A stretch of DNA of 64,000 nt from Teichococcus rhizosphaerae (lineage in GTDB: Bacteria > Pseudomonadota > Alphaproteobacteria > Acetobacterales > Acetobacteraceae): positions 62,001-126,000 of the forward strand of contig NZ_PDNU01000015.1 of assembly GCF_002631185.1 (NCBI RefSeq), given 5' to 3'. Positions 6,856 through 56,368 of this stretch are shown one piece after another. How positions within the stretch are numbered: the first letter of the stretch is position 1; each line of letters begins with the position of its first letter. Made by a program: the position numbers and the translations under genes. The notes under the pieces were generated by a model. That model had not been told where the DNA came from. It saw nothing but the letters and a program-made list of their open reading frames with translations, and searched no databases.

Positions 6856-8499
6856 ATGACCGTCCTCTCTCCCCCCGGCGCCGCCGCCGCGCTGGCGGCT
6901 TCGCCGGACCGCCCGGTGCCGGGATGGGAAGGGAGGGAGGGCGGCCTGTTGGCCGAGGCGCTGGTGGCGCGGATCGCCGCGCGGACGGCCCGGGTGGGGG
7001 TGGTGGGGCTGGGCTATGCCGGGCTGCCGCTGGCCCTGCGCTTCGCCGAATGCGGCTTTCCCGTCTCGGGCTTCGACATCGACGCGGAAAAGGTGGCGGC
7101 CATCGCCGCCGGGCGCAGCCCGGTGCACGGCATCCCCGACGGGCGCGTGGCGGCGGCGCGCATCGCCGCCAGCGCGGACCCCGCCGGGGCGTGGGCGTGC
7201 GACGTGCTGATCATCTGCGTGCCGACGCCGATCGGCCGCCACAAGGAGCCGGATCTCGGCCCCGTCTCGGCCGCGCTGGCGGCGCTGCTGCCGCATCTGC
7301 GCCCCGGCCAGGTGCTGGCGCTGGAAAGCACCACCTATCCCGGCACCACGGAGGAATACGTGCTGCCCGCCCTGCGCGCCGCGGGCCTCACCCCGGGCCG
7401 CGACGCCTTCGTGCTCTACAGCCCGGAGCGCGAGGACCCCGGCAACCCGGAGGGCACGGTGGGCCGCGTGCCGAAGCTGCTGGGCGGCGCCACCCCCACC
7501 TGCCTCGCCGTGGGGCAGGCGCTCTACGGGCCGGTGGCGGGGCCGCTGGTGCCGGTCTCCTCGCTGCAGGTGGCGGAGCTGGCCAAGCTCTACGAGAACG
7601 TCTTCCGCGCGGTGAACATCGGCCTCGTCAACGAGCTGAAGCGGATCAGCCACGCCTTGGGCCTCGACGTGCACGAGGTGATCGACGCCGCCGCCACCAA
7701 GCCCTTCGGCTTCATGCCCTTCCGGCCCGGCCCCGGCCTCGGCGGCCACTGCATCCCGGTCGATCCCTACTACCTCGCCTGGAAGGCGCGCGAGCTCGGC
7801 GTGCCGAGCGACTTCGTGGAGCTCGCCGGCCGGGTGAACGACGCCATGCCGGGCTATGTCGTCTCGCGCCTGCGGGACGCGCTGGACGCGCGCGGCCGGG
7901 GCCTGCGCGGCGCCCGGCTGCTGCTGGTGGGGCTGGCCTACAAGCCCGGCGTGCCGGACACGCGGGAAAGCCCGGCGGCCGAGATCCTGCGGCTGCTGGA
8001 CGAGCGCGGCGCCGTCCTGTCCTACCACGACCCGCTGGTGCCGCGCTTTTCCCTGGCGCGCGGCGGGCGCGGCGCGCTGGCGCTGGAAAGCCAGCCCCTC
8101 GCGCCGGACCTCGTCGCCGCGCAGGACGCGGTGGTGGTGGTCACGCCGCAGCCGGGCATCGACTTCGCGGCGCTGCGCGCGGCCGCCCGGCTGGTGGTGG
8201 ACACGCGCGGCATCTACCGCGACGCGGCGGTGCAGCCGGACGGCACGGTGTTCCCAGGCTCCGTGTCCCCAGGCTCCGTGTCCCCAGGCTCCGTGTCCCC
8301 AGGCTCCGTGTCCCCAGGCTCCGTGTCCCCAGACTCCGTGTCTCCTGGCTCCAGCCCCTCCGCCGCCTGGCCGTCCGGCGCGCTCTGCCCCGGCACGCCG
8401 CCTTCGGGCGGCTTTTCCCTGGGCACGTTGCCCTTTGAAACGCGCGGTGATTTCCCTCCGCGGGCGGAACCGGCCTATCACCGCGTCATCCAGGCCTGA
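6856..8499 (+). CDS. wbpA: UDP-N-acetyl-hexosamine 6-dehydrogenase with a repeat-bearing C-terminal tail
   Basis: NAD-dependent four-electron oxidation of UDP-GlcNAc (or UDP-ManNAc) to the uronic acid. The protein has 547 residues: Rossmann GVVGLGYAGLPLA at 48-60, a central domain, and catalytic Cys299 in GLGGHCIPVDPYY, a motif set closest to WbpA. The conserved enzyme ends near residue 462 (VVDTRGIY). The remaining 85 residues are an unusual tail starting with six SPGSV/SPDSV pentads (466-495) encoded by a 15-bp tandem array, then low-complexity sequence. The usual length of the family is about 430 residues, so the tail is an addition. It lies in the polysaccharide operon between the dehydratase and the WbpE-like aminotransferase. 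Confidence 0.88.
   Translation: MTVLSPPGAAAALAASPDRPVPGWEGREGGLLAEALVARIAARTARVGVVGLGYAGLPLALRFAECGFPVSGFDIDAEKVAAIAAGRSPVHGIPDGRVAAARIAASADPAGAWACDVLIICVPTPIGRHKEPDLGPVSAALAALLPHLRPGQVLALESTTYPGTTEEYVLPALRAAGLTPGRDAFVLYSPEREDPGNPEGTVGRVPKLLGGATPTCLAVGQALYGPVAGPLVPVSSLQVAELAKLYENVFRAVNIGLVNELKRISHALGLDVHEVIDAAATKPFGFMPFRPGPGLGGHCIPVDPYYLAWKARELGVPSDFVELAGRVNDAMPGYVVSRLRDALDARGRGLRGARLLLVGLAYKPGVPDTRESPAAEILRLLDERGAVLSYHDPLVPRFSLARGGRGALALESQPLAPDLVAAQDAVVVVTPQPGIDFAALRAAARLVVDTRGIYRDAAVQPDGTVFPGSVSPGSVSPGSVSPGSVSPGSVSPDSVSPGSSPSAAWPSGALCPGTPPSGGFSLGTLPFETRGDFPPRAEPAYHRVIQA
8251..8355 (+). repeat. 15-bp tandem array inside the wbpA 3' end
   Basis: Six copies of a 15-mer (TCCCCAGGCTCCGTG; first copy starts TTC, sixth has one change) are followed by a degenerate seventh. 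The array is in frame and encodes SPGSV pentads. Copy boundaries are 8251, 8266, 8281, 8296, 8311, 8326 and 8341. Confidence 0.97.
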
Positions 8500-8521
8500 G
8501 GGCCGCCCCGCGGGGCGCCCC

Positions 8522-8547
8522 GCCGCCTGCGGATGCCGCCTGCGGAT
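8522..8547 (+). repeat. 13-bp direct duplication before the wbpE start
   Basis: GCCGCCTGCGGAT occurs twice head to tail, ending 18 bp before the ATG of the aminotransferase gene. Each copy contributes an ATG-like triplet that makes upstream false starts possible. Confidence 0.9.
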
Positions 8548-8565
8548 GACGGAGCACGACTGCCG

Positions 8566-9726
8566 ATGAACGCCGACACCTCCCCGCGCCCGATCGGGCT
8601 GTTCGACATGAAGGCGCAGCAGTCGCTGATCCGTGCCGAGATCGACCGCCGCGTCGCCGCCATCCTCGACAGCGGCGCCTTCATCAACGGCCCCGACGTG
8701 CGGGAGCTGGAGGAGAAGCTGGCCGAGTTCGCCGGCTGCGCGCACGCGGTGGGCGTCTCCTCCGGCACGGACGCGCTGCAGATCGCCATGATGGCCGAGA
8801 ACATCGGCCGCGGCGACGCCGTGTTCCTGCCCGCCTTCACCTATACCGCGACGGCCGAGGTGCCGCTGGTGCTTGGCGCCACGCCGGTCTTCGTCGATGT
8901 CGCCGAGGACGGCTTCAACATCGACCTCGCCGACCTGCGGCGGCGCATCGCGCTGGTGAAGGAGGAAGGGCGGCTGCGCCCGCGCGCCGTGGTGGGCGTG
9001 GACCTGTTCGGCCGCCCGGCCGACTGGCCGGCGATCCAGGAGATCTGCCGCGCGGAAGGCATGTTCGCGCTGGACGACGCGGCGCAGGCCTTCGGCGCCG
9101 CGCTGCACGGCAGGCGCCTCGGCCAATGGGGCGATGCCGCGGCGCTCAGCTTCTATCCCACCAAGACGCTGGGCTGCTACGGCGATGGCGGCGCCATCCT
9201 GACCAACGATGCCGGCCGCGCCGAGCTGTACCGTTCCCTCCGCACCCATGGCGAGGGCAAGACCCGCTACGAGGTGGAGCGCACCGGCATGAACGGGCGC
9301 CTCGACACCCTCCAGGCCGCCATCCTGCTGTGCAAGCTGCCGCTGCTGGAACAGGAGCTGAAGGACCGCGCCCGCGTCGCCCGCTTCTACGGCCAGCACC
9401 TGGCTGGCCATGTGACGGTGCCGGGCGAGATGCCGGGGGCGGAGAGCGCCTGGGGCCTCTACTCCATCCTGCTGCCGGATGCCGAGGCGCGCGGCCGCGT
9501 GCAGGCGGCGATGCAGGCGCGCGGCGTGCCCAGCGCCATCTACTACCCGAAGCCGCTGCACCGCCAGCCGGCCTATGCGAAGGCCCATGCCGAGGGGCTG
9601 CGCCAGGCGCCGCCCCTGCCGGTGAGCGAGAGCCTCTGCCAGCGCATCCTGTCCCTGCCGATGCACCCCTATCTGGACGAGGGGCAGCTCGAGCGCGTGG
9701 TGGCGGCGGTGACCGCCGGGCTCTGA
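8566..9726 (+). CDS. wbpE: DegT/DnrJ/EryC1/StrS aminotransferase, WbpE-like
   Basis: PLP-dependent 3-aminotransferase type acting on a UDP-3-keto-HexNAc uronate. The 386-residue protein has IGLFDMKAQQ at the N terminus, the SSGTDALQIA loop, DDAAQAFGA (Asp for the pyridine nitrogen) and Lys200 in FYPTKTLGCYGDGG, a combination characteristic of WbpE rather than PglE. The ATG at 8566 is chosen because alignment with WbpE-type proteins starts a few residues later; an in-frame ATG at 8533 lies inside a 13-bp duplication. WbpB-type oxidase and WbpD-type acetyltransferase partners are not in this window, so the full UDP-diNAc-uronate pathway cannot be completed here. Confidence 0.87.
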   Translation: MNADTSPRPIGLFDMKAQQSLIRAEIDRRVAAILDSGAFINGPDVRELEEKLAEFAGCAHAVGVSSGTDALQIAMMAENIGRGDAVFLPAFTYTATAEVPLVLGATPVFVDVAEDGFNIDLADLRRRIALVKEEGRLRPRAVVGVDLFGRPADWPAIQEICRAEGMFALDDAAQAFGAALHGRRLGQWGDAAALSFYPTKTLGCYGDGGAILTNDAGRAELYRSLRTHGEGKTRYEVERTGMNGRLDTLQAAILLCKLPLLEQELKDRARVARFYGQHLAGHVTVPGEMPGAESAWGLYSILLPDAEARGRVQAAMQARGVPSAIYYPKPLHRQPAYAKAHAEGLRQAPPLPVSESLCQRILSLPMHPYLDEGQLERVVAAVTAGL

Positions 9727-9776
9727 GCCTTCCGCCGGGCGGAGGCGGTGCTCAGCCCGGCGCCACGCTTTCCGAG

Positions 9777-11609: not shown

Positions 11610-11971
11610 CCGCCGCAGCCCTTCCGCCTGTTTCCGGCGGCATGGGTTTCACAGCCGCCCCTGCTTGGCAATCCGTGCCTTGGCCTGGCGATCCGCAGGA
11701 GGGCGATCCGCGGGGGCCAATCCGCGGGGCCGATCCGGCCATGAGGGAGGGCTGAGCGAAAGTTGACGCCGGCGGCGGATTGCGGCCCGCGCCCCCGCCC
11801 GGCAGGATCGGCGCCATCCGGACCGGCATGGCATGGGTCCTGCGCGGCGCGGTGTCGCCTGCCCGTTGCGGAAGCCTGGGGCCTGGCCATTTCTCGATCT
11901 TTCCCGCCGGTCCTCCGGTGGCCACCCGCGTCCGGGCCGGCCATCGCCCGGGTGGCCCGCCCCCAGACCTG
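11610..11971. other. intergenic region between divergent panE and LOV kinase genes
   Basis: This 362-bp gap holds the divergent promoters by position. An open frame extends upstream from the kinase start to about 11780, but it encodes an Arg/Pro/Gly-rich stretch with no family resemblance, so I treat it as noncoding. The notable content is a 15-bp degenerate tandem array (11667-11740). I see no convincing -35/-10 pair. Confidence 0.6.
11667..11740. repeat. degenerate 15-bp tandem array, GATCCGC-core
   Basis: Units at 11687-11701, 11702-11716 and 11717-11731 share GGCGATCCGCGGG-like sequence, with a related ATCCG segment at 11667-11681 and a partial copy after 11732. It lies closer to panE than to the kinase gene. 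Confidence 0.75.
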
Positions 11972-13594
11972 ATGGAACTCCCGATGGAGCCTGATCCAGC
12001 CTCCCGCGTTTCCCGCTCGATCGCCGCCGGCAATGGCGGGAAGCAGTATGGCGACATCTTCTTCGCGGCCGTGGAAACCACGCGCATGCCGATGATCGTC
12101 ACGGATGCGCGGGCCAGGGACAACCCGATCATCTTCGCCAACAACGCCTTCCTGAAGATGACGGGCTACAGCCTGGAGGAGATCCTCGGCACCAATTGCC
12201 GCTTCCTGCAAGGGCCGGAAACCGATCGGAACACGGTGGACAGCGTCCGCGCCGCGATCCGGGAGCGGCGCGAGATCGCCACCGAGATCCTCAACTACCG
12301 CAAGAACGGCTCCAGCTTCTGGAACGCGCTGTTCGTGTCCCCGGTCTACAGCCCGGAAGGGGAGCTGATGTACTTCTTCGGCTCACAGCTCGACGTCAGC
12401 CGGCGGCGGGACGCCGAGGACGCGCTGCGGCAGAGCCAGAAGATGGAGGCGCTGGGCCAGCTCACCGGCGGCATCGCGCATGACTTCAACAATCTGCTGC
12501 AGGTGATGGTGGGCTATCTGGAGCTGACCGAGTTTGCCCTCGGCCGGCCGGAGCTGGACCGCAACCGCATGCGGCGGGGGCTCGAGAACGTGCGCGGCGC
12601 GGTGAACCGCGCCACCACCCTGACGCAGCAATTGCTGGCCTTCGCCCGCAAGCAGCGGCTCGACGGCCGCATCCTGAACCTCAACACCCTGGTCGAGGGC
12701 ATGCGCGACATGGCCCGCCGGACCCTGGGCGACGGCATCTCGCTGCGGCTGGACCTGGCGGAGGGCCTGGGCAATTGCCGCCTCGACCCCACCCAGGCCG
12801 AGGTGGCGCTGCTCAACATCCTGATCAACGCGCGCGACGTGCTGGCGGGGCAGCCGGAAGGCGAGCTGGTCATCGCCACCCGTGAGGTGGCGCTGAGCGC
12901 GGAGGAGGCCGCCAATATCGGCAATCTGGGGGCGGGGAACTACGTGCTGCTCTCCATCGCCGACAACGGGCCCGGCATGCCGCCCGACATCCTGGCGCGG
13001 GTGATGGACCCCTTCTTCACCACCAAGGAGGAGGGCAAGGGCACCGGGCTCGGCCTGTCGATGGTCTATGGCTTCGCCAAGCAGTCCGGCGGCGCGCTCT
13101 GCCTGGATTCCGGGCTGGGTTCCGGCACCACGGTCAGGCTCTACTTCCCGAGCCAGGGGGAGGAGGAGCGGCCGACCTCGCAGCGCGCCCTCCGCGTCAT
13201 AGACCGCCCCGGCACCGAACACATCCTGGTGGTGGACGACCGCGAGGAGGTGGCCGAGCTGGCCCGCGCCATCCTGGAGGATTTCGGCTACACGGTCCTG
13301 GTGGCCGGCAATGGGCGCGAGGCGCTGGAGGTGCTGGACCGCGCCGGACGGGTGGACCTGCTGTTCTCCGACCTGATCATGCCGGGCGGCATGAACGGCG
13401 TGATGCTGGCCCGCGAGGCGCGCCGCCGCCAGCCGAAGCTGAAGGTGCTGCTCACCACCGGCTATGCCGAGGCCTCGCTGGAGCGCAGCGACGCCGGCGG
13501 CTCCGAGTTCGACGTGATCAGCAAGCCCTATGGCCGGCTGGAGCTGGCCCGCAAGGTGCGGCTGATCCTGGACGGCCCGACCGGCATCGGCTGA
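11972..13594 (+). CDS. LOV-domain hybrid histidine kinase (blue-light sensor kinase with receiver)
   Basis: A 540-residue soluble sensor. The PAS/LOV core spans about residues 30-145 with the canonical flavin-adduct motif GTNCRFLQG (Cys76), [10 protein letters not shown] for the flavin ring and Gln139 in FFGSQLDV. HisKA follows with phospho-acceptor His170 (GGIAHDFNN), then HATPase_c (N box near 283, DNGPGMPP near 331, GTGLGLS), then a receiver domain from about 417 (VVDDREE) with phospho-acceptor Asp467 (FSDLIMP). This order is that of known bacterial LOV-HK-RR proteins. No transmembrane segment is present. Start is ATG 11972 or 11984; both precede the LOV core. No cognate regulator gene adjoins, so the output is unknown. 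Confidence 0.9.
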
Positions 13595-17400: not shown

Positions 17401-17509
17401 GGGGAACGTCCTCTCCGGATGAGCACGGCGCCAGGCGCCGCTGTTGCATGACGTAACCGCGTGCGGCGATGGCTTCAATCCGGCGCCGCCAGCGCCTAGT
17501 TTGCCCCCC

Positions 17510-18412
17510 GTGAGCACCCCCGCGCCCCCTTCGGCCCCCCCCTCGGCCCCCCCCTCGGCCCCCCCCTCGGCCCCCCCCTCGGCCCCCCCCTCGGCCCCCC
17601 CCTCGGCCCCACGGCCCCTGCCCGCCAGCCCCGCGCGGCGCCCAGGCGTCCCGCCCGCCGGCGGCGGCCTGCACCGCTTCGCCAATCCCGGCCGCTTCCT
17701 GCGGCTGACCGACCGCGTGCTGCCCTGGCTGTGGGGCGCCGCCCTGCTGGTGCTGGGCGCCGGCGCCGCCTGGGCGCTGCTGTTCTCGCCGCCCGACTGG
17801 CAGCAGGGCGAGACGGTGCGCATCATGTATGTCCATGTCCCGATGGCCTGGCTGGCCATGGGCGGCTATCTGGGCCTGGCCATCGCCTCGCTGATGTCGC
17901 TGATCTGGCGCCACCCGCTGGCCGACCTCGCGGCGCGCGAGCTGTCGCCCGTTGGCGCCATGGTCACGGCGCTCTGCCTCGCCACGGGCAGCCTGTGGGG
18001 GCGGCCCATGTGGGGCACCTGGTGGGCCTGGGACGCGCGGATGACCTCCGTGCTGGTGCTGTTCTTCCTGTGGATGGGCCATGCCGCCCTGGTGCGCGCC
18101 TTCGACGAGGAGGAGCGCGGTGCCCGCGCCGGCGCCATCCTGGCCCTGATCGGGGCGGTGAACCTGCCGGTCATCAAGTGGAGCGTGGACTGGTTCAACA
18201 CGCTGCACCAGTCGGCCTCCGTCACGCGGGCGGCGGCGCCGGGGATGCATGTGGACATCCTCTACCCGCTGATGGTCTGTGCCCTGGGCTTCGGCCTCGC
18301 CTTCGCCGCGCTGGTGCTGGCGCGGACGCGGGCGGCGGTGATGGAGCGGCGGGTGCGGCAGCTCCAGCTGGCGCAGGCGCGGCGGCACGATGGCGGGGCG
18401 GCGGAGAAGTGA
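17510..18412 (+). CDS. ccmC: heme exporter/handling protein CcmC, with repeat-built N terminus
   Basis: Integral membrane protein of System I cytochrome c maturation that presents heme to CcmE. About six membrane segments lie from residue 75 on, and the tryptophan-rich periplasmic signature WGTWWAWD is at 168-175. Only a GTG at 17510 offers a sensible start in frame (the first ATG is deep inside the conserved region). From it the protein opens with seven SAPP tetrads encoded by a 12-bp array with C8 tracts. The family normally has only about 20 residues before its first membrane segment, so this 65-residue Pro/Ala/Ser extension is unusual. ccmA and ccmB are not adjacent. Confidence 0.9.
   Translation: MSTPAPPSAPPSAPPSAPPSAPPSAPPSAPPSAPRPLPASPARRPGVPPAGGGLHRFANPGRFLRLTDRVLPWLWGAALLVLGAGAAWALLFSPPDWQQGETVRIMYVHVPMAWLAMGGYLGLAIASLMSLIWRHPLADLAARELSPVGAMVTALCLATGSLWGRPMWGTWWAWDARMTSVLVLFFLWMGHAALVRAFDEEERGARAGAILALIGAVNLPVIKWSVDWFNTLHQSASVTRAAAPGMHVDILYPLMVCALGFGLAFAALVLARTRAAVMERRVRQLQLAQARRHDGGAAEK
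17531..17610 (+). repeat. 12-bp poly-C tandem array in the ccmC 5' end
   Basis: TCGGCCCCCCCC is repeated six times from 17531 to 17602, followed by a partial copy. Every unit has a run of eight C. Unit gain or loss keeps frame, whereas slippage within a C8 run would frameshift ccmC. Confidence 0.96.
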
Positions 18413-21180: not shown

Positions 21181-21187
21181 GGGTCCG

Positions 21188-21257
21188 GCAGCCCAGGACG
21201 CAGCCCAGACGCAGCCCAGCCCATGCCCATGACCGGAGCCCGACCATGCCCATGACC
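21188..21257 (+). repeat. 11-12-bp and 23-bp direct repeats between ccmF and ccmG
   Basis: GCAGCCCAGAC-like units repeat three times (from 21188), then CCATGCCCATGACC occurs at 21221-21234 and again at 21244-21257, a 23-bp period. The second copy holds the ccmG start codon, so the first is a decoy duplicate of the start region. Confidence 0.85.
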
Positions 21258-22291: not shown

Positions 22292-23099
22292 CCTGGTTTC
22301 TGTTTTGATCTGGCTCCTCTTCCTGGGGCTGGCGGCGCTCGCCCTGGCGCCGCTCGGGCTTGCCCTGCTGCGTCCCGTCCGCCTCACCGGCCGGCGCGAG
22401 GCCGACCTCGCCCTTTACCGCGCCCAGCTCGCCGAGCTGGAGCGCGAGCGGGCCGCGGGGCGGCTGGACGAGGGGGCGCACCGCGCCGCCACGCTGGAGG
22501 TGCAGCGCCGCCTGCTGGCCAGCAGCGACGCGGGGGGCCAGAGCCATGGCGGGCGCGGCGCGGCCGTGCTGGCGGCGCTGCTGTTCCTGGTGCCGGCGCT
22601 GGGGTTCGGCGTTTATCTCCAGCGCGGCAACCCGGAGCTGCCGGCCGCGCCCTATGTGGAGCGGGCCGAGGCCGCGGCGCGCGACGACGCGCTGATGACC
22701 CAGCTCCGCGCCCGGCTGGAGCAGGTGCCGGCCGGCAGCGAGACGGCACGCCAGGGCTGGATCCTGCTCGGCAATGCCGAGCGCGGCCGCGGCCGCTGGG
22801 AGGCCGCCGCCGCTGCCTGGCGCCGCGCCCTGGAGGCGCGCTTCGAGGGACCGCTGGCGGCTGAGCTGGCCGAGCTGCTGATCGAGCATGGCGGGCTGGA
22901 CGAGGCCGCCTCCCTGCTCGCCCGCGCGCTGGCCGCCGAGCCGGAGCAGCCCCGCCTGCGCTACCTGTCCGGCCTGGGCGAGGCGCGCGCCGGCCGCACC
23001 GAGAACGCCCGCGCCACCTGGCGCGCCCTGTTGGCCCAGGCCCCGGCCGACGCGCCCTGGCGCGCCCTGGTGGAGCGGCGCCTGCAGGAGCTGCCCTGA
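22275..23099 (+). CDS. ccmI: cytochrome c biogenesis protein CcmI/CycH
   Basis: Apocytochrome c chaperone: two N-terminal membrane spans (about 8-30 and 93-112) with a heptad-rich LYRAQLAELERERAAGRLDE loop between them, then a periplasmic TPR-like region to residue 274. It overlaps ccmH by 17 bp and ends the ccm operon. Its last codons (QELP, stop) are the first unit of a downstream 15-bp tandem array that recreates an in-frame stop 15 bp later. Confidence 0.9.
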   Translation: MTPPDDLVSVLIWLLFLGLAALALAPLGLALLRPVRLTGRREADLALYRAQLAELERERAAGRLDEGAHRAATLEVQRRLLASSDAGGQSHGGRGAAVLAALLFLVPALGFGVYLQRGNPELPAAPYVERAEAAARDDALMTQLRARLEQVPAGSETARQGWILLGNAERGRGRWEAAAAAWRRALEARFEGPLAAELAELLIEHGGLDEAASLLARALAAEPEQPRLRYLSGLGEARAGRTENARATWRALLAQAPADAPWRALVERRLQELP

Positions 23100-23175
23100 G
23101 AAAGGCTGTCCTGAGAGAGGCTGTTCTGGGAGGAACTGCCCTGGGAGGAACTGCCCTGGGAGGAACTGCCATGCC
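23086..23175 (+). repeat. 15-bp tandem array spanning the ccmI stop codon
   Basis: Six 15-bp units start at 23086, 23101, 23116, 23131, 23146 and 23161. The first is the coding end of ccmI, and the fourth and fifth are identical (AGGAACTGCCCTGGG). The second unit carries another in-frame TGA. Confidence 0.93.
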
Positions 23176-24099: not shown

Positions 24100-24112
24100 G
24101 GGGCAGGCGCCC

Positions 24113-24142
24113 GCCCCGGTTCCGCCCGCCCCCGTTCCGCCT
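24113..24142. repeat. 15-bp near-duplication between convergent genes
   Basis: GCCCCGGTTCCGCCC is followed directly by GCCCCCGTTCCGCCT, with two differences. Confidence 0.75.
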
Positions 24143-28098: not shown

Positions 28099-29766
28099 AT
28101 GACGCATGACGAGACTGGCCCGCGCTGGCAGCGCATCCTCTCGCCCACGCGGCGCGGCCTGTTCGCCATTGGCGGCGGCGCGGCGGCGGCGCTGGCCGCC
28201 GGCCCGGCCCGGGCGCAGCCCCGCCCGCCCGAGAAGCCCAAGGGCCAGGTGGTGGCCGGCCTGTCGCAGGAGCCCACCGTCTTCCACCCGCTGATGCCGG
28301 GCATCGAGGTGGACCAGGGCGTGTGGTGGAACCTGTTCAGCACCCTCTGGTACATCGACCCGGACGGCAACTTCGTTCCCGACCTGGCGGCGGAGATGCC
28401 GAGCCAGCGGAACGGCGGCATCTCCGAGGACGGCCTGACCTGGAAGGTGAAGCTGCGCCAGGGCGTGAAGTGGCATGACGGCGCGCCCTTCACCGCCGAG
28501 GACGTGAAGTTCACCCTGGAGCTGATCAACAATCCCGGCTTTCGCGTCCGCAACCGCGTCGGGCACGGGCTGGTGCGGGACATCCAGGTGGTGGCGCCGG
28601 ACGAGATCCAGTGGCGGATGGAGACGGCCTACGCGCCCTATCTCTCCATCCTCTCGCTCACCTTCATCGTGCCGAAGCACAAGCTGGCCGACGCGGCGGA
28701 CCCCAACAACACGCCCTTCGCGGCGGCGCCCGTCGGCACCGGCGCGTTCCGCTGGGGCAGCCGCGCGGCGGGCGACCACATCCTGCTGAACGCCAACCCC
28801 GACTATCACGGCAAGGGGCCGTATGTGGAGCGGCTGGTGTTCAAGTACATCCCGGACCTGACGGTGCTCTACACCCAGTTCCGCACGGGCCAGGTCGACT
28901 ACACGGGCATCTCCGGCATCCTGCCCAATTTCGCGCGTGAGGCGCAGGGGCTGCGCGGCCGCAAGGTCCATGTGAACCCGATCGCCTCGGTGGAGAGCAT
29001 CGCGCCCAATCTCGGCTTCCCCGCCCTGGCCGACAAAACGGTACGCCAGGCGCTCTATCTGAGCATGAACAAGAAGGCGCTGATCGACGCCATCTATTAC
29101 GGCCTGCCGACGCCCACCGAATCCTTCCTGCCGCGGCAGAGCTGGGCCTACAACCCTGACCTGCCGCAGCACGAATACAACCCCGCCAAGGCCAATGCGC
29201 TGCTGGACGCGGCGGGCTGGAAGCGGGGCGCGGGCGGCATCCGCGAGAAGGACGGCGTGCGGCTGGAGTTCACCAACTCCACCACCACCGGCAACCAGGT
29301 GCGCGAGCAGGTGCAGCAATACCTGATGCAGGAATGGCAGGGCATCGGCGTCGGCATGAAGATCCAGAACATGCCCGCCGCCGTCATCTGGGGCGAGTTC
29401 TGGCAGCAGTCCAAGTTCAACTCCGTGCTGGTGAGCGTGAACTACATGCTGGGCAGCGACCCGGACGTGACGCCGCGCTTCAGCAGCAAGGCCATCCCCG
29501 CCAAGGGCGGGCGCGGGCAGAACACCTTCCAGTTCGAGAACGCCGAGGTGGACGCGCTGCTGCAGAAGGGCGCCACGCAGTTCGACCAGGCGGCGCGCAA
29601 GGCCACCTATGGCCGCATCCAGGAGATCATCCGCGACGAGCTGGCGATCCTGCCGATCTTCCAGCAGTCGCTGGTGGAAGGGGTGAAGGAGGGGCTGCAC
29701 GGCTTCCGCGCCAACATCAACACCTCCTCCAACTGCTGGAACATCCGCGAATGGTACTGGGCCTGA
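28099..29766 (+). CDS. ABC transporter substrate-binding protein, peptide/opine family (SBP_bac_5)
   Basis: A 555-residue periplasmic binding protein with a twin-arginine-like signal (TRRGLFAIGGG ... GPARA) and family-5 features: ATDL-like VADLAAEMP region, LRQGVKWHDGAPFTAEDVKFT near 117-137, and the C-terminal INTSSNCWNI. Family members bind oligopeptides, nickel or opines. No permease or ATPase gene is adjacent, so it must work with unlinked components. The final codons (WYWA, stop) are duplicated as a 15-bp unit with a second in-frame stop. It is divergent from the XRE-cupin regulator. Confidence 0.9.
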   Translation: MTHDETGPRWQRILSPTRRGLFAIGGGAAAALAAGPARAQPRPPEKPKGQVVAGLSQEPTVFHPLMPGIEVDQGVWWNLFSTLWYIDPDGNFVPDLAAEMPSQRNGGISEDGLTWKVKLRQGVKWHDGAPFTAEDVKFTLELINNPGFRVRNRVGHGLVRDIQVVAPDEIQWRMETAYAPYLSILSLTFIVPKHKLADAADPNNTPFAAAPVGTGAFRWGSRAAGDHILLNANPDYHGKGPYVERLVFKYIPDLTVLYTQFRTGQVDYTGISGILPNFAREAQGLRGRKVHVNPIASVESIAPNLGFPALADKTVRQALYLSMNKKALIDAIYYGLPTPTESFLPRQSWAYNPDLPQHEYNPAKANALLDAAGWKRGAGGIREKDGVRLEFTNSTTTGNQVREQVQQYLMQEWQGIGVGMKIQNMPAAVIWGEFWQQSKFNSVLVSVNYMLGSDPDVTPRFSSKAIPAKGGRGQNTFQFENAEVDALLQKGATQFDQAARKATYGRIQEIIRDELAILPIFQQSLVEGVKEGLHGFRANINTSSNCWNIREWYWA

Positions 29767-29781
29767 TGGTACTGGACCTGA
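29752..29781 (+). repeat. 15-bp duplication across the binding-protein stop codon
   Basis: ATGGTACTGGGCCTG is followed by ATGGTACTGGACCTG. Both copies contain TGA in the gene's frame once joined to the next base. Confidence 0.92.
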
Positions 29782-31182: not shown

Positions 31183-31187
31183 CGACC

Positions 31188-31208
31188 GGCCCGGCGCGCC
31201 GCCGGGCC
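31188..31208 (+). terminator. GC hairpin after the FAD oxidoreductase gene
   Basis: GGCCCGGCG and CGCCGGGCC form a perfect 9-bp stem with a 3-nt loop, 6 bp after the stop. No T-run follows immediately; a pyrimidine-rich 13-bp array starts at 31246. Confidence 0.5.
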
Positions 31209-31245
31209 ATGGCGCTCCGCCCCGGCGAGGCCCCGCCTTCGCCCC

Positions 31246-31284
31246 CTTCTCCCGCTCCTTTCTCCCGCTCCTTTCTCCCGCTCC
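31246..31284 (+). repeat. 13-bp tandem array, pyrimidine-only core
   Basis: Three units of TTTCTCCCGCTCC (first begins CTT) lie head to tail between the oxidoreductase and the AGE-type isomerase gene. Confidence 0.92.
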
Positions 31285-31330
31285 GGCCGGCCGCTTGCGG
31301 AAGGAAGGGCGGGCGGGGTAACGCGGCGGC

Positions 31331-32435: not shown

Positions 32436-33965
32436 ATGCGCATCATCGTCTGCGGCGCCGGGCAGGTCGGCACCACCATCGCGCGGCACCTGGCGCGGGA
32501 GGGCAACGACGTCACCGTCATCGACCTTTCGGAGGAGCAGGCCCGCCGCGCCGACGAGAGCTACGACGTGCGCGGCATGGCCGGCCACGCCTCCCACCCC
32601 GAGGTGCTGCGCCGCGCCGGGGCCAAGGACGCCGACCTGCTGATCGCCGTCACCCGCTCGGACGAGGTGAACATGGTGGCCTGCCAGGTGGCCTATTCCC
32701 TGTTCCGCGTGAAGCGGCGCATCGCCCGGCTGCGCCACCACGGCTACCTGGAGCCGATCTGGACCAACCTCTACGCCCAGGACCAGATGCCGGTGGACGT
32801 CATCATCTCGCCGGAGGTGGAGGTGGCGCGCGGCATCGCCCGGCGGCTGCGCACCCCCGGCGCCTTCGACATGGTGCCGCTGGCCGATGGCCGGGTGCAG
32901 CTGCTCGGCATCCATTGCGAGGACGCCGCATGCCACGTCGCCGGCAGGCCGCTGCGCGACCTGCGCCAGCGCGCCGCCGAGAACGGCTTCGTCGTCGTGG
33001 CCCTGGTGCGGGAAGGCCGCGCCTTCGTGCCGCGGCCGGAGGACGAGGTGCGCTGCGGCGACGATGTCTATGTCATCGCCCAGCCCGCCCAGGCGGACCA
33101 GGTGATGGCCGCCTTCGGCCACCGGGAGCAGGTGGCGCGGCGCGTGGTCATCGTCGGCGGCGGCCATGTCGGGCTGCACCTGGCGCGGATGCTGGGGCGG
33201 GAGGCGCTGGTCTCCCTCAAGGTCATCGAGCACAGCCCGGAGCGGGCCAGGGAGGTGGCGCAGGAGCTTGGCTCCTCCGTGGTCGTGCTGCAGGGCGACG
33301 CGCTGGACCGCGAGCTGCTGGAGGAGGCCAATATCGGCGCGGCGGAAACCGTGGTCGCCGTCACCAATGACGACGAGACCAACATCTTCGTCTCCGTGCT
33401 GGCCAAGCGGGCCGGCTGCCAGCGCGCCATCACCCTGGTGAACAAGGGCTCCTACGAGCCGATGATGGACACGCTCGGCGTCGACACGGTGGTCAGCCCC
33501 AGCAGCATCACCATCTCCTCCATTCTGCGGCATGTGCGGCGCGGCGCCATCGCGCAGGTCTATCAGCTGCGCGGCGATTTCGGCGAGGTGCTGGAAGCGA
33601 AGGCCCTGGCCGGCTCCCGCCTGGTCAGCGGCAGGTTGGGCGAGATCGGGCTGCCGCCGGGCATGCTGATCGGCGCCGTGCTGCGCGAGGGCGAGGCCAT
33701 CATCCCCAACGCCGCCACCCGCATCCAGCCGGGCGACGACATCATCGCCGTGGTCTCGCACGCGGCGCTGAAGCAGGCCGAGGCCGTGCTGACGGTGCCC
33801 GGCCACGAGGATGACCGCCCGCCGCCCGGCCCCGCCGGCCTCGACCCCGACAGCCTCGACCCCGACAGCCCCGCCCTCCACAGCTCCGGCCCCGACAGCT
33901 CTGGTCCCGACAGCTCCGGTCCTGCCCGTTCCCATCCCGCCGGCCGCGGCCCCGATGCGGCCTGA
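32436..33965 (+). CDS. trkA: Trk potassium uptake regulator TrkA with repeat-built C-terminal tail
   Basis: Peripheral membrane NAD(H)-binding gating subunit of the Trk potassium channel. Two RCK_N/RCK_C pairs are visible: GAGQVGTTIA at 7-16 and GGGHVGLHLA near 241-250. Typical TrkA proteins end at about 458 residues. Here 50 extra residues follow (PPGPAGLDPDSLDPDS and similar), encoded by six 15-bp units. The last 11 bp overlap the trkH ATG. The tail is unlike any part of the family and may be disordered. Confidence 0.94.
   Translation: MRIIVCGAGQVGTTIARHLAREGNDVTVIDLSEEQARRADESYDVRGMAGHASHPEVLRRAGAKDADLLIAVTRSDEVNMVACQVAYSLFRVKRRIARLRHHGYLEPIWTNLYAQDQMPVDVIISPEVEVARGIARRLRTPGAFDMVPLADGRVQLLGIHCEDAACHVAGRPLRDLRQRAAENGFVVVALVREGRAFVPRPEDEVRCGDDVYVIAQPAQADQVMAAFGHREQVARRVVIVGGGHVGLHLARMLGREALVSLKVIEHSPERAREVAQELGSSVVVLQGDALDRELLEEANIGAAETVVAVTNDDETNIFVSVLAKRAGCQRAITLVNKGSYEPMMDTLGVDTVVSPSSITISSILRHVRRGAIAQVYQLRGDFGEVLEAKALAGSRLVSGRLGEIGLPPGMLIGAVLREGEAIIPNAATRIQPGDDIIAVVSHAALKQAEAVLTVPGHEDDRPPPGPAGLDPDSLDPDSPALHSSGPDSSGPDSSGPARSHPAGRGPDAA
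33840..33929 (+). repeat. 15-bp tandem array in the trkA 3' end
   Basis: Units start at 33840, 33855, 33870, 33885, 33900 and 33915. The first two are identical (CTCGACCCCGACAGC); later units diverge but five of six end in ACAGC. The same DNA is open in the trkH frame. Confidence 0.92.
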
Positions 33966-35457
33966 AGCGCCGCGCCCGGCGGGGCTGGGAGGCTGGTCGC
34001 CGCCGCCGCTGCGGCCGGTGCTGCACCTCACCAGCGGCATGCTGCTGGCCCTGGCCGCCTTCATGCTGCTGCCGGCGGCGCTCGACGCGGCGCATGGCCA
34101 TCCGGACTGGAAGCCCTTCGCCACGGCGAGCCTCGGCCTGCTGGCCGGCGCGGGGCTGCTGTTCCGTGCCACGCGCTGCCCGCTGGCGGAGGGGCTGACG
34201 CTGCGCCAGGCCTTCGTGCTGACGCCGCTGAGCTGGGCCACCATCACCGCCTGCGCCGCCATCCCGCTCTACCTGTCGCAGCACCCCGGCCTCGGCGGCA
34301 GCCTGACCAACGCCTATTTCGAGGCGGTCTCGGGCCTCACCACCACCGGCGCCACCGTGGTCACGGGGCTGGACCACGCGCCGCCCGGCATCCTGCTCTG
34401 GCGCTCGCTGCTGCAATGGCTGGGCGGCATCGGCATCATCGCCACGGCCGTGGCCATCCTGCCGGCGCTCGGCGTCGGCGGCATGCAGCTCTTCCGCACG
34501 GAAAGCTCGGACCGCTCGGAGAAGGTGCTGCCGCGCGCGCGCCAGATCGCCACGGCCATCACCCTGGTCTATGTGGGCCTGACGGCGGCCTGCGCCCTGG
34601 CCTACCTGGCCGCCGGCATGGCGGCGTTCGACGCGGTGGTGCACGCGCTCAGCACCATCTCCACCGCCGGCTTCTCCACCTCCGACGCCTCCCTGGCCCG
34701 CTGGGACAGCCCGGCCGTCCACTGGATCGCCACGGTGGGGATGCTGGCCGGCGCGCTGCCCTTCGTGCTCTACCTGCGCGCCCTGCGCCGGGACTGGGAG
34801 ATCCTGCGGGACCCGCAGGTGCGGGCGCTGCTCGGCCTGCTGCTGGGCGCCACCCTGCTGGTGGCGGCCATCCTGCTGGTCCGCGGCGTCTATGGCGTGG
34901 AGGAGGCGCTGCGCCACGCGGCGCTCAGCGTGGTCTCGGTGGTCACCACCACCGGCTATGCCTCGGCCGACTACACGAAGTGGGGCGGGGCGGCCGTCGG
35001 CATCTTCTTCGCGCTGATGTTCGTGGGCGGCTGCACCGGCTCCACGGCGGGCGGCATGAAGATCTTCCGCTTCCTGGTGGTGGCCATCATGCTGCGGGCG
35101 CACTTCCTGCGGCTGCTCTACCCGCGCGGCGTGTTTCCCCGCGTCTATGCCGGCCGCCCCCTGCCGGACGACGTGATCGGCTCCGTCGTGGTGTTCTTCG
35201 CCCTCTACTTCTTCTGCTACGGCGCCATCACCATCGCGCTGATGGCGATGGAGCTGGACTTCCTCACCAGCGCCAGCACCGCGGTCAGCATGCTCTCCAA
35301 TGTCGGCCCCGGCCTCGGGCCGCTCACCGGGCCGGAAGGCAACTTCTCGGCCATGCCGGAGGCGGCGAAGTGGCTGCTCTGCTTCGCCATGCTGCTCGGC
35401 CGGCTGGAGCTGTTCACCGTGCTGATCCTGTTCATGCCGCGCTTCTGGCGCGGCTGA
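33955..35457 (+). CDS. trkH: Trk potassium transporter membrane subunit TrkH
   Basis: Potassium channel-like subunit, 500 residues with about ten membrane segments arranged as four M1-P-M2 repeats. Filter regions include TTTGATV (first loop), STAGFSTSD, TTTGYASADY and LSNVGPGLG. ATG 33955 overlaps trkA by 11 bp and is chosen as the start; an in-frame ATG at 33811 would add a Pro/Thr/Ala-rich 48-residue leader read from the trkA repeat array. The 3' end runs into a 16-bp tandem array that includes its stop codon. Confidence 0.93.
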   Translation: MRPEAPRPAGLGGWSPPPLRPVLHLTSGMLLALAAFMLLPAALDAAHGHPDWKPFATASLGLLAGAGLLFRATRCPLAEGLTLRQAFVLTPLSWATITACAAIPLYLSQHPGLGGSLTNAYFEAVSGLTTTGATVVTGLDHAPPGILLWRSLLQWLGGIGIIATAVAILPALGVGGMQLFRTESSDRSEKVLPRARQIATAITLVYVGLTAACALAYLAAGMAAFDAVVHALSTISTAGFSTSDASLARWDSPAVHWIATVGMLAGALPFVLYLRALRRDWEILRDPQVRALLGLLLGATLLVAAILLVRGVYGVEEALRHAALSVVSVVTTTGYASADYTKWGGAAVGIFFALMFVGGCTGSTAGGMKIFRFLVVAIMLRAHFLRLLYPRGVFPRVYAGRPLPDDVIGSVVVFFALYFFCYGAITIALMAMELDFLTSASTAVSMLSNVGPGLGPLTGPEGNFSAMPEAAKWLLCFAMLLGRLELFTVLILFMPRFWRG

Positions 35458-35510
35458 CCCTCGGCGCGGCTGACCCTCGGCGCGGCTGCTCCGGGGCGCG
35501 GCTGCTCCGG
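35447..35510 (+). repeat. 16-bp tandem array across the trkH stop codon
   Basis: Four units begin at 35447, 35463, 35479 and 35495. The first two are GGCGCGGCTGACCCTC, the last two GGCGCGGCTGCTCCGG. Unlike the other arrays, the unit is not a multiple of three. Confidence 0.95.
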
Positions 35511-41857: not shown

Positions 41858-42436
41858 ATGTCCGCCTCGCAGCATGAACTGATGATCGAGCGCGCCGAGG
41901 CGCTCGACGAGCTGGACCTCGCCGACCTGTGCGAGGCCACCGACGCCGCCATCATCGAGGGGGGCGGCTTCGGCTGGGTGGAGCCGCAGGGGCGGGAGGC
42001 GCTGGCGCGGCATTTCCGCGGCGTGCTGCTGGTGCCGGGCAGCGAGCTGTTCATCGCGCGCCTCGACGGCGTGCCGGTGGGCTCGGCCCAGCTCATCCGC
42101 CCGCCGCGCAACAACGAGGCGCAGGCCTTCGGCGCCCAGCTCACCCATGCCTACATCGCGCCCTATGCGCGCGGCCACGGCCTCGCCCGGCTGATGGTGC
42201 GCCGGGTGGAGGAGCGCGCCGCCGCCCTCGGCCACCGCGTGCTGAACCTCGACGTGCGGGAAACGCAGAGCACCGCCATCGCGCTGTTCGAGGCGCTGGG
42301 CTACACGCGCTGGGGCACCCACCCGGCCTATGCCCGGGTGCGCGGCCGCACCGTGGCCGGCCACTACTACTACAAGCTGCTGGAGCCGCCGCGCGGCCGG
42401 GCGCTCGACATGCGCGCCGGCCCGCCGCAGAACTGA
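41858..42436 (+). CDS. GNAT family N-acetyltransferase
   Basis: A 192-residue acetyl-CoA-dependent acetyltransferase. The core has the pyrophosphate-binding segment ARGHGLARLMVRRVEERA near 105-122 (a Q/R-x-x-G-x-G/A variant) and LNLDVRETQSTAIALFEALGYTRWGT, the motif B region. The substrate is unknown. It follows hisH without a gap, a position where hisA would be common. The stop codon lies in a 15-bp duplication that supplies a second in-frame stop. Confidence 0.87.
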   Translation: MSASQHELMIERAEALDELDLADLCEATDAAIIEGGGFGWVEPQGREALARHFRGVLLVPGSELFIARLDGVPVGSAQLIRPPRNNEAQAFGAQLTHAYIAPYARGHGLARLMVRRVEERAAALGHRVLNLDVRETQSTAIALFEALGYTRWGTHPAYARVRGRTVAGHYYYKLLEPPRGRALDMRAGPPQN

Positions 42437-42460
42437 GCGCTACATAACTGAGCGCCGCCG
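42431..42460 (+). repeat. 15-bp duplication across the GNAT stop codon
   Basis: AACTGAGCGCTACAT is followed by AACTGAGCGCCGCCG. Both TGA codons are in the GNAT reading frame. Confidence 0.88.
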
Positions 42461-42527
42461 CGGCCCTGGACGCCGGGCCCGCCGCCTCCCATCTTCCGGG
42501 GCACGGGCTTGCGGAGGGAACAGGGCC

Positions 42528-48225: not shown

Positions 48226-48230
48226 GAACC

Positions 48231-49852: not shown

Positions 49853-49903
49853 ATTGCGCGGAAGCATCGGTTGCGCGGCAGGCTCAGTTGCGCGGAAGGC
49901 GGG
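49853..49903 (-). repeat. 17-bp tandem array across the aroC stop codon
   Basis: Three 17-bp units at 49853, 49870 and 49887 share TTGCGCGG-AG cores. The middle unit ends in the minus-strand stop of aroC. Confidence 0.85.
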
Positions 49904-50990
49904 GCCGCTCCGGCGCATCGGGGTTCTGGGCGCGGTGGCGCAACAGGTGGTCGGCCAGCACACAGGCCAGCATCGCCTCGCCCACCGGCACGGCGCGGAT
50001 GCCGACGCAGGGGTCGTGCCGGCCCAGGGTCCGCACCTCCACCTCCTGGCCGAAGCGGTCCACCGAGCGGCGCGGCGTCAGGATGGAGGAGGTGGGCTTC
50101 ACCGCGAAGCGCGCCACGATGGGCTGGCCGGTGGAGATGCCGCCGAGGATGCCGCCCGCATGGTTGGACAGGAACGCCACCTCGCCATCCTCCCCCATGC
50201 GCATCTCGTCCGCATTGGCCTCGCCATCCAGCGCGGCGCTCGCGAAGCCCTCGCCGATCTCGACGCCCTTGACCGCGTTGATGCTCATCAGCGCGCCCGC
50301 GAGCTCGGCGTCCAGCTTGCCGTAGAGGGGGGCGCCGAGGCCCGCCGGCACGCCTTCCGCCACCAGCTCGATGACGGCGCCCAGCGAGGAGCCGGCCTTG
50401 CGCGTGGCGGCCAGCTTCTCCTCCCACGCCGGCACGGCGGTGGGGTCGGGGCAGAAGAAGGGGTTCCTGTCGGTTTCCGCCCAGTCGAGCCGGGCGCGGT
50501 CGATGCCGAGCGGGCCCATGGCCACCATGGCGCCGCGGATGGATACGCCCGCGCCCAGCACCTTGCGGGCGATGGCGCCGGCCGCCACGCGCACCGCCGT
50601 TTCCCGCGCGCTGGAGCGGCCGCCGCCGCGATAGTCCCGCACGCCGTATTTCAGGTGGTAGGCGAGGTCGGCATGGCCGGGCCGGAAGCGGTCCCTGATC
50701 TCGCCATAGTCCTTGCTGCGCTGGTCCTGGTTCTCGATCAGCAGCGAGATGGGCGTGCCGGTGGTCAGCCCCTCGAACACGCCGGACAGGATGCGCACCT
50801 GGTCCGGCTCCTGCCGCTGGGTGACGAACCTGCTCTGGCCCGGGCGGCGCCTGTCGAGAAAGGGCTGGATGTCCGCCTCGGTGAGCGGAATGCCGGCCGG
50901 GCAGCCATCCACCACGCCGCCGATCGCCGGGCCGTGGCTCTCGCCCCAGGAGGTGACGCGGAAAAGATGGCCGAAGCTGTTGTGCGACAT
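49884..50990 (-). CDS. aroC: chorismate synthase
   Basis: Last shikimate-pathway step, EPSP to chorismate, requiring reduced FMN. The 368-residue protein is complete: [18 protein letters not shown] (signature 1), [38 protein letters not shown] (signature 2), and the C-terminal [17 protein letters not shown] signature. It starts at the residue expected for the family ([20 protein letters not shown]). The last residues and stop lie in a 17-bp tandem array. Confidence 0.97.
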
Positions 50991-51620: not shown

Positions 51621-51622
51621 GA

Positions 51623-52216: not shown

Positions 52217-52224
52217 GCCAGGGC

Positions 52225-55268: not shown

Positions 55269-55412
55269 CGAGGCGATCCGCCGGCCAGGCTCTAGCCTCC
55301 ACCCCCCGCCGGAAGGGCGGAGGATGGCGGGCGGGACGCGCGCCGCCGCGCCGTGTTACAATGCTCCGCGCCCGGTCGTCCGGGTGCCGGATTGGAGGAA
55401 GGAGACCAACCG

Positions 55413-56288
55413 ATGGCCTACCGCCGGCTGTTGCTGCCGCTGACCGGAACCGCCGCCGGCGAAGCGGCGCTGAAAACCGCGCTGATGGTGGCGCGGACCT
55501 GGAACGCGCATGTGCATTGCCTGCATGTCCGCGTCGATGCGCGCGACGTGGCGCCGCTGGCGGGCGAGGGCCTTTCGGGCGCCATGATCGAGGAGATGAT
55601 GGCGGCCACCGAGCGCGAGAGCGGCGAGCGCGCGGGGCGCGTGCGCAGCCTGTTCGAGAAGTTCGTGCAGGGGCGGGACGTGACCATCGCGCTTTCCGCC
55701 GAGAGCGCGCTGAAGACCGAGGGACCGACCTTGTCCTTCGAGTCGATCGCGGGGCGCGAAGAGGACGTGGTGGCGCAGCAGTCGCGCCTCTACGACATGG
55801 CGGTGGTGCCGCACCCGGAGGCGGACGAGGACGTCTCCTCCTCCGATGCGCTGCATGCCGTGCTGTTCGATTCCGGCCGCCCCGTGCTGATCGCCCCGCG
55901 CGAGCCGCCCGTCACCATCGGCACGCGGGTCTGCTGCGCCTGGAACGGCACGGCGGAAAGCGCCGCGGCGGTGGCGGCGGCGCTGCCCTGGCTGCACCAT
56001 GCCGAGGCGGTGCGCATCCTGCACAGCCAGGACTACCAGCGCCGCGGCCCGGATGCGGAGGGGCTGAAGGCCTATCTGCGCTGGCACAGCATCCAGGCCG
56101 AGGCGGTGCCGTTCAAGCCGCAGACGCGCGAGGTGGGCGCGGGCCTGCTCGGCGCGGCGCGGGACTTCAACGCGGACCTGCTGTGCATGGGCGCCTACAG
56201 CCATTCCCGCCTGCGCCAGCTGATCCTGGGCGGCGTGACGCGGCATGTGCTGGAGAACGCGGACATCCCCGTCCTGATGTGCCGCTGA
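55413..56288 (+). CDS. universal stress protein (tandem UspA-type)
   Basis: A 291-residue cytoplasmic protein with two Usp-like halves. The first (MAYRRLLLPLTGTAAGEAAL, with HVHCLHVRVD) lacks a clear ATP loop. The second ends ADLLCMGAYSHSRLRQLILGG VTRHVLENADIPVLM, the G-x2-x-...GG-V/S-T pattern of ATP-binding UspA proteins. A strong AGGAAGGAG ribosome site precedes ATG 55413. It stands alone between a 144-bp gap and a terminator. Confidence 0.9.
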   Translation: MAYRRLLLPLTGTAAGEAALKTALMVARTWNAHVHCLHVRVDARDVAPLAGEGLSGAMIEEMMAATERESGERAGRVRSLFEKFVQGRDVTIALSAESALKTEGPTLSFESIAGREEDVVAQQSRLYDMAVVPHPEADEDVSSSDALHAVLFDSGRPVLIAPREPPVTIGTRVCCAWNGTAESAAAVAAALPWLHHAEAVRILHSQDYQRRGPDAEGLKAYLRWHSIQAEAVPFKPQTREVGAGLLGAARDFNADLLCMGAYSHSRLRQLILGGVTRHVLENADIPVLMCR

Positions 56289-56306
56289 GGCTGGCGAGGA
56301 ACGAGC

Positions 56307-56335
56307 GAGCCGGGGAGAAGGAATTCCCCCGGCTC
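56307..56335 (+). terminator. hairpin between the convergent stress-protein and VOC genes
   Basis: GAGCCGGGG and CCCCGGCTC form a 9-bp stem with an 11-nt loop, 18 bp after the stress-protein stop, followed by CCTTC. It can serve both convergent genes. Confidence 0.65.
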
Positions 56336-56338
56336 CCT

Positions 56339-56368
56339 TCACGCGCCAGCCAGTCACGCGCCGGCCAG
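56339..56368 (-). repeat. 15-bp duplication across the VOC gene stop codon
   Basis: TCACGCGCCAGCCAG and TCACGCGCCGGCCAG are adjacent. Each starts with the complement of TGA, so the VOC gene has a second in-frame stop 15 bp beyond the first. Confidence 0.93.

What the first reader, a model, noticed from the sequence alone, without database searches (positions are those of the whole stretch)
8251..56368. Recurring 11-17-bp tandem duplications at gene ends, many spanning stop codons
At least a dozen short tandem arrays occur in 64 kb: 8251, 8522, 9777, 11667, 17531, 21188, 23086, 24113, 29752, 31246, 33840, 35447, 42431, 49853 and 56339. Units are 11-17 bp apart from one 23-bp period, most often exactly 15 bp, and nearly all touch a gene's first or last codons or lie just outside. 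In ccmI, the binding protein, GNAT and VOC genes the unit holds the stop codon and recreates an in-frame stop 15 bp on. In wbpA and trkA the same kind of array is translated as a tail. A plausible model is slippage-driven duplication at gene ends, with stop loss converting silent copies into new C-terminal sequence.
Basis: partly seen in the sequence, partly recalled or inferred. Interest (0 to 1): 0.72.

Follow-up and report, generated by a model that had tools for sequence, protein, structure and literature searches.

The report
Short tandem duplications between bacterial genes
This high-GC bacterium has many recent head-to-tail duplications of roughly 10-19 bases in the gaps between genes and across stop codons, probably because duplications do little harm there; they do not seem to be building new protein ends.

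Summary
The arrays are real. TRF confirms 13 of the 15 listed sites; 9777 and 42431 have no row even at score 30. In 646 kb of this genome 37 of 100 arrays lie in spacers or across stops (placement 10-11, shuffles 2-4); stops are crossed 12 times, starts never. Exact spacer duplications are all 10-19 bp, without a clear 15-bp preference. Of 25 arrays mappable in a syntenic sister species, 24 are not arrayed there.

The stop-loss model is not supported. ccmI, a binding protein, trkH and chorismate synthase keep the same last residues and stop in both species; the VOC gene is colinear to its stop. The translated tails of a UDP-sugar dehydrogenase and TrkA are in-frame insertions before a shared stop. 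No clearly translated stop-bearing copy was seen; one sister-species tail is ambiguous.

Best reading: ordinary short tandem duplication followed by slippage, with selection removing most copies in genes and at starts but not in spacers or across stops, where translation ends in the first copy. The kind is known. Narrow size range, little junction homology without Ku, and a local cluster here are the less ordinary features.

The parts
8248..8352 (+).
   Evidence: TRF score 174-182; family TIGR03026 over its cut-off; absent in sister, whose protein ends in the same AEPAYHRVIQA and stop
8522..8548 (.). 13-bp x 2.1 exact duplication in the spacer 8500-8565
   Evidence: scored as one copy in the sister (alignment)
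11689..11737 (.). 13-bp x 3.5 imperfect array in the spacer 11610-11983
   Evidence: absent in sister
17525..17610 (.). 12-bp x 7.2 C-rich array between divergent called genes (would read as PPSA repeats if the right-hand gene began at the TTG at 17444)
   Evidence: scored 'present' in the sister by the automatic count, but the alignment shows no clear array there
21188..21257 (.). 11-bp x 2.8 array (21188-21219) in the spacer 21181-21245; a looser 23-bp row (21185-21257) runs over the called start at 21246
   Evidence: 11-bp array absent in sister
23090..23170 (+). two adjoining 15-bp arrays: x2.3 over the ccmI stop (TGA 23097-23099) with an in-frame TGA 15 bp on, and x3.0 exact just downstream
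   Evidence: ccmI by TIGR03142; protein end identical in sister
24108..24141 (.). 15-bp x 2.3 array in a convergent spacer
   Evidence: absent in sister
29751..29781 (+). 15-bp x 2.1 array over the stop of a substrate-binding protein gene (28099-29766), second in-frame TGA 15 bp on
   Evidence: scored single copy in sister, which ends at the same codon and, by eye, has diverged 15-bp-spaced copies of its own
31247..31284 (.). 13-bp x 2.9 exact array in the spacer 31183-31330
   Evidence: absent in sister
33826..33919 (+). 15-bp x 6.3 array translated in the C-terminal tail of trkA (32436-33965)
   Evidence: TrkA NF007031; in-frame tail insertion, 509 vs 478 aa, same final stop as sister
35447..35510 (+). 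16-bp arrays (x2.6 and x2.0) beginning over the trkH stop (gene 33955-35457); 16 bp, so the second TGA is out of frame
   Evidence: trkH end identical in sister
42428..42462 (+). weak 15-bp-spaced partial repeat (AACTGAGCGC, seen by eye) over the stop of a GNAT gene (41882-42436)
   Evidence: no TRF row at score 30; extra sequence relative to sister; GNAT PF00583
49848..49900 (-). 17-bp x 3.1 array over the stop of chorismate synthase (49884-50990, minus strand)
   Evidence: PF01264; sister has one copy, interval 35 bp shorter
56339..56368 (-). 15-bp x 2.0 array over the stop of a VOC/glyoxalase gene (56354-57226, minus strand)
   Evidence: PF00903; coding ends colinear with sister to the stop; the sister has a different 11-bp array in the same spacer
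62285..62326 (+).
   Evidence: PF03968; the sister also has a 15-bp array in its Gln-rich tail

Best explanation
The arrays are the standing record of ordinary short tandem-duplication mutation (mostly 10-19 bp), filtered by purifying selection. A duplication inside a gene is mostly tolerated only if in frame and in a low-complexity tail. One across a start or promoter tends to be removed. One in a spacer is silent, and one across a stop is silent at any length because translation ends in the first copy. Two-copy duplications then grow or shrink by replication slippage and are replaced within the time that separates sister species. Shown: the excess, the location bias, the size range, the lineage specificity and the conserved stops. 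Inferred: the molecular event (slippage or template switching at a stalled polymerase) and that selection rather than mutation bias makes the pattern.
For: Excess in spacers and over stops versus placement and shuffles. Over-stop to over-start arrays 25 to 2 in three species (12/7/6 and 0/1/1), where placement expects 9.5 to 6.6 (p = 0.0002). Arrays per available site similar at stops and in spacers in this genome and G020. Stop-spanning periods are divisible by three in only 9 of 25, as expected if any length is silent. Unit sequences differ from locus to locus, by eye. Turnover: 24 of 25 mappable arrays scored as not arrayed in the sister, 9 of 10 the other way. Clean one-unit insertions. 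Stops conserved. MutS present. Coding exact duplications have period 12, 15 or 24 only, 36 of 36, but see against.
Against: The multiple-of-three rule in coding DNA is partly a codon-composition effect: codon and synonymous shuffles also favour 12, 15, 18 and 21. Classical slippage uses pre-existing short repeats, but among 19 exact duplications with fewer than 2.6 copies the extra match beyond two copies is 0 in 7 and 1 in 6 (mean 1.63, chance 0.90; 4 of 19 at four or more, chance 3.6%), so only some show microhomology. A 3'-side bias that selection alone need not give: convergent spacers 7 vs 1.8 expected here, 3 vs 1.4 in G020, 0 vs 0.2 in G008. The window is a local cluster (13 arrays, scan P = 0.004) without a known cause. 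G008 does not fit equal site density: 6/12,680 at stops, 2/29,389 in spacers. Strains of one species could not be compared, and the outgroup G008 mapped only 9 of 37 arrays, so gain and loss are mostly not polarised.
Confidence: 0.77

Rival explanations
1. One reading: slippage targets gene ends, and stop loss turns silent copies into new C-terminal protein sequence.
For: Arrays cross stops more than placement predicts (12 vs about 4). Two window genes have translated arrays in their tails. Pairs with an array at or near the stop differ more often in stop register (8 of 27 vs 52 of 368, Fisher p = 0.047). In one pair (G000:C1|44) the sister's tail is replaced next to a 9-copy array.
Against: Stops conserved at the window's stop-spanning arrays; tail arrays are in-frame insertions upstream of the old stop; no clearly translated stop-bearing copy in the differing pairs. 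Stop-spanning sites are hit no more often than spacer sites in this genome.
Confidence: 0.07
2. The duplications serve as backup in-frame stop codons kept by selection.
For: ccmI, the binding protein, GNAT and VOC show a second stop 15 bp on, in frame (by eye).
Against: Only 9 of 25 stop-spanning arrays have periods divisible by three, close to one third. A systematic study finds no compelling evidence of selection for extra stops in eubacteria (PMC6764699, abstract and section list read).
Confidence: 0.03
3. Fill-in of staggered breaks or paired nicks followed by Ku/LigD end joining makes short duplications of overhang length (mechanism recalled).
For: Bounded size and frequent absence of microhomology.
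Against: No Ku (PF02735) match in this genome or in G020, though 11 of 17 genomes of the genus have one; G020 also shows the arrays.
Confidence: 0.04
4. The arrays are functional 3' regulatory elements (mRNA stability, termination, protein binding).
For: Bias to gene 3' sides and convergent spacers.
Against: Unit sequences differ from locus to locus, by eye, and orthologous spacers in the sister mostly lack the arrays.
Confidence: 0.05

Closest known systems
Bacterial VNTR / minisatellite loci (recalled as a class)
   Same: Head-to-tail units of about 10-20 bp, few copies, fast turnover
   Different: Copy-number variation among strains of one species was not testable; seen here only between species
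Tandem repeats of archaeal Borg elements (PMC9879509, passages read)
   Same: Recently formed, absent at the same place in relatives, unit length divisible by three inside ORFs but mostly not in intergenic regions; about half intergenic or starting at gene ends
   Different: Borg repeats are perfect and A-enriched and lie in extrachromosomal elements; these are GC-rich, often imperfect, and beside housekeeping genes of a bacterial genome
Micro-tandem duplications as the main class of short insertions in flies and primates (PMC2374710, passages read)
   Same: Short insertions that copy the adjoining sequence
   Different: Eukaryotes; no stop-codon analysis in the passages read
TAACTGA heptamer direct repeats of Beggiatoaceae and others (PMC4679880, abstract and section list read)
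   Same: Many small direct-repeat sets scattered in intergenic DNA
   Different: One fixed 7-bp unit, in that genome mostly just upstream of starts; here no shared unit is seen and starts are avoided

Membership tests
VNTR / minisatellite tandem repeat | Head-to-tail repeats of units of about 10 bp or more | tested here: met
VNTR / minisatellite tandem repeat | Copy number differs between close relatives | tested here: met
   24 of 25 mappable arrays scored as not arrayed in the sister species; 12 of 37 had no mapped interval, partly because the matching stretch was not fetched
VNTR / minisatellite tandem repeat | Copy number differs between strains of one species | not testable with these tools
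   the genome set holds one genome per species
Shared-unit repeat family (such as TAACTGA) | One repeat unit common to many loci | tested here: not met
   units of the 37 spacer/stop arrays compared by eye only
Borg-type tandem repeats | Perfect, A-enriched units | tested here: not met
   GC-rich, often imperfect units
Backup (additional) stop codons | In-frame second stop kept by selection | tested here: not met
   9 of 25 stop-spanning periods divisible by three
Ku-dependent end-joining duplications | Ku present in the genome | tested here: not met
   no PF02735 match in G000, a draft genome rated 100% complete

The most novel reading that the evidence does not exclude
A Ku-independent process in this genus makes tandem duplications of sharply bounded size (10-19 bp; none of 20-80 bp among exact spacer cases, 4 of 65 with one mismatch allowed), often without microhomology and biased to gene 3' sides and convergent spacers. 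It would point to a specific replication or transcription-collision lesion rather than generic slippage, with gene ends as true mutational hotspots.
Probability: 0.15. Interest if true: 0.5.

Novelty: new member of a known kind. Interest (0 to 1): 0.27.

Why it matters
It shows with counts how a tandem-duplication process leaves its mark where selection is blind: spacers, and stop codons, where a duplication of any length is silent. It also warns against reading stop-spanning repeats as stop-loss innovation. The arrays could serve as typing markers for Pseudoroseomonas-like species. The narrow size range and the frequent lack of junction homology are a small open question that mutation accumulation could answer.

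Tried and rejected
Mismatch-repair loss: a MutS match is present in this genome (MutL not tested). Ku end joining: no Ku match in this genome or G020. A shared unit or mobile repeat: units differ by eye. Replication terminus as cause of the window cluster: GC skew is weak with no clear switch in C21, so inconclusive. 15-bp preference: weak.

Dropped or limited data: the G006 stretches (gene model failed, coding 0.38) and 20 kb of G010 were not used in the genus survey. 12 of 17 genomes of the genus were counted; G005, G006, G010, G023 and G024 were not. Genes were called by my own dicodon script, not a standard program, so gene starts are less certain than stops. The one-mismatch scan finds one start-crossing duplication in this genome (G000:C2:178798, period 14) that the TRF count does not have. 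Site counts assume a nominal array width of 38 bases. The control of 80 loci includes two of this genus (L061, L062) and had low called coding fractions at low GC, so its spacer counts are rough; of its 8 spacer/stop hits 4 come from one locus, L124, and its 66-70% GC group reaches 2.2 per 100 kb, within the range of the genus.

Papers: searches; no paper in the held library has Roseomonas together with tandem repeats and intergenic. One search on C-terminal extension by duplication did not run, so I claim nothing about what is not in print there.

Full report
What the window is. It is bases 62001-126000 of a 176-kb contig in a 4.65-Mb draft genome of 113 contigs. The nearest named relatives found with TrkA are Pseudoroseomonas aestuarii (92% over 458 residues) and P. 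aerophila (74%). G020 is taken to be P. aestuarii because contig length and position agree. It is colinear with nearly the whole window at 85-92% nucleotide identity in 12 blocks.

Check of the observation. TRF confirms 13 of the 15 listed arrays at score >=50; 9777 and 42431 have no row at score 30. The window has 22 arrays of period 9-40: 8 intergenic, 5 over a stop, 3 C-terminal coding, 2 N-terminal coding, 4 interior. Family scans name the relevant genes: a UDP-sugar dehydrogenase, ccmI, a substrate-binding protein, trkA, trkH, a GNAT protein, chorismate synthase, a VOC protein and an LptD_N-domain (LptA-like) protein; the binding-protein and trkH names rest on NCBIfam matches below the curated cut-offs.

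More than chance. In 646,175 bases of this genome 100 arrays were found. Over stops there are 12 (placement 4.1-4.3; shuffles 0.2-1.1), in spacers 25 (placement 5.9-7.1; shuffles 2.1-2.9), over starts 0 (placement 3.0), interior 35 (placement 60.7-61.6; shuffles 12.8-22.7). A separate scan for exact tandem duplications of period 12-80 in spacers extended 30 bases into genes found 20, 7 and 4 in G000, G020 and G008, against 0.2, 0 and 0 in shuffles; every exact one has a period of 19 or less. Of 63 TRF spacer/stop arrays in the three species 54 have a period of 19 or less. Other species of the genus show 0-4 TRF spacer/stop arrays per 100 kb (9 genomes, 80-100 kb each). In a rough control of 80 alphaproteobacterial and a few other loci (two of them of this genus) there are 8 exact spacer/stop cases of period 12-80 in 1.4 Mb, 4 of them in one locus; the 66-70% GC group has 2.2 per 100 kb, against 3.1, 1.0 and 1.1 in G000, G020 and G008. 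So the arrays are an excess over shuffled sequence, but this genome is not shown to be unique.

Period. There is no clear 15-bp rule: exact spacer/stop cases of period 11 or more are 11 (3), 12 (6), 13 (7), 14 (5), 15 (6), 16 (3), 17 (1), 19 (2). In TRF counts 15 is the commonest period, 16 of 63. Coding exact cases have period 12, 15 or 24 only, 36 of 36. That is what frame selection predicts, but codon composition alone also favours multiples of three (shuffles).

Lineage specificity. For 25 of 37 spacer/stop arrays an orthologous interval was found in G020; by automatic scoring 15 were absent, 9 had a single copy and 1 was called present (a C-rich array that the alignment does not support). 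In reverse 10 of 18 mapped: 5 absent, 4 single, 1 present. In two intervals each species has an array of its own with a different unit. The outgroup G008 mapped only 9 of the 37 (3 absent, 5 single, 1 present). Unmapped arrays are partly due to stretches not fetched. Some insertions equal exactly one unit: +15 bp at G000:C1:37487 and +16 bp in G020 at position 68699 of the C74 piece that begins at contig base 20001. At window 49848 the sister has one copy where this genome has three.

Stop codons. ccmI, the binding protein, trkH and chorismate synthase share their last 14 residues with their sister orthologs. The UDP-sugar dehydrogenase and GNAT ends differ by one and three of 14 residues and keep the same stop, and the VOC gene is colinear to its stop. 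TrkA (509 vs 478 aa) and the dehydrogenase (547 vs 494 aa) differ by in-frame insertions upstream of a shared stop. Among 395 ortholog pairs 27 have an array at or near the stop in one or both species: 19 keep the stop register and 8 do not, against 316 and 52 of the 368 without (p = 0.047, uncorrected). Of the 8, five were read at DNA level and the LptA-like pair; two were seen only as protein tails. In three of the five the stop position itself differs by 4-5 codons, each with the array in G020. In two of these (G000:C1|93, G000:C2|52) the first copy holds the sister's stop. In the third (G000:C1|44) the sister's tail is unlike ours and adjoins a 9-copy array that TRF starts at the stop; whether the tail itself came from an array cannot be told. 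So stop loss is not shown anywhere, and at the listed window genes it is contradicted.

Why gene ends. Arrays per available site are similar for stop-spanning sites and spacers in this genome (12/22,840 vs 25/43,127) and G020 (7/20,800 vs 11/40,817), but not in G008 (6/12,680 vs 2/29,389). Over-stop to over-start counts are 25 to 2 in the three species against a placement ratio of 9.5 to 6.6, p = 0.0002 (arrays taken as independent). A duplication across a stop is silent at any length because translation ends in the first copy; only 9 of 25 such arrays have lengths divisible by three, so a second in-frame stop is not visibly selected. A 3'-side bias (convergent spacers 7 vs 1.8 expected in G000, 3 vs 1.4 in G020, 0 vs 0.2 in G008; in tandem spacers closer to the stop 8:3, 5:2, 1:0) fits avoidance of promoters but could also be mutational.

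How they arise. Junction homology is short: of 19 exact cases with fewer than 2.6 copies 7 have none and 6 have one base beyond two copies, though 4 of 19 have four or more against 3.6% by chance. This suggests a first duplication that needs little homology, then growth by slippage; this step is inference. No Ku match is found here or in G020, and a MutS match is present.

Local cluster. 13 of the 37 spacer/stop arrays lie in this 64-kb window, which holds 10.7% of the sampled spacer DNA. Without it this genome (24 in 582 kb) is not clearly denser than G020 (18 in 597 kb; p = 0.36).

Known or new. The closest parallels are bacterial VNTR loci (recalled), the tandem repeats of Borg elements, which show the same contrast of frame-keeping in ORFs and freedom elsewhere (PMC9879509, passages), and the finding in flies and primates that most short insertions are tandem duplications (PMC2374710, passages). 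Nothing here needs a new kind of system.

Noticed in passing
G000:C1:242739-243283 (locus L039, 2739-3283): A 19-bp x 28.7 array of 545 bp between two convergent called genes, the highest-scoring spacer/stop array of the sampled sequence of this genome.
   Followed up: no
window 62285-62326: 15-bp Gln-rich repeat in the tail of an LptA-like gene; the sister species also has a 15-bp array there, unlike the spacer arrays.
   Followed up: partly
window 1-64000: Local cluster of spacer/stop arrays (13 of 37 in about 10% of the sampled sequence) with no cause found.
   Followed up: partly
locus L162, 11011-11146 (G020:C19): 15-bp x 9.1 array starting at a gene's stop in the sister species, where the protein tail also differs from this genome's ortholog.
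   Followed up: partly
locus L188, 7918-8059 (G008:C1): 16-bp x 8.9 exact spacer array in a third species of the genus.
   Followed up: no
genus survey, 17 genomes: Ku (PF02735) is patchy in the genus: 11 of 17 genomes have a match; this genome and G020 do not.
   Followed up: no
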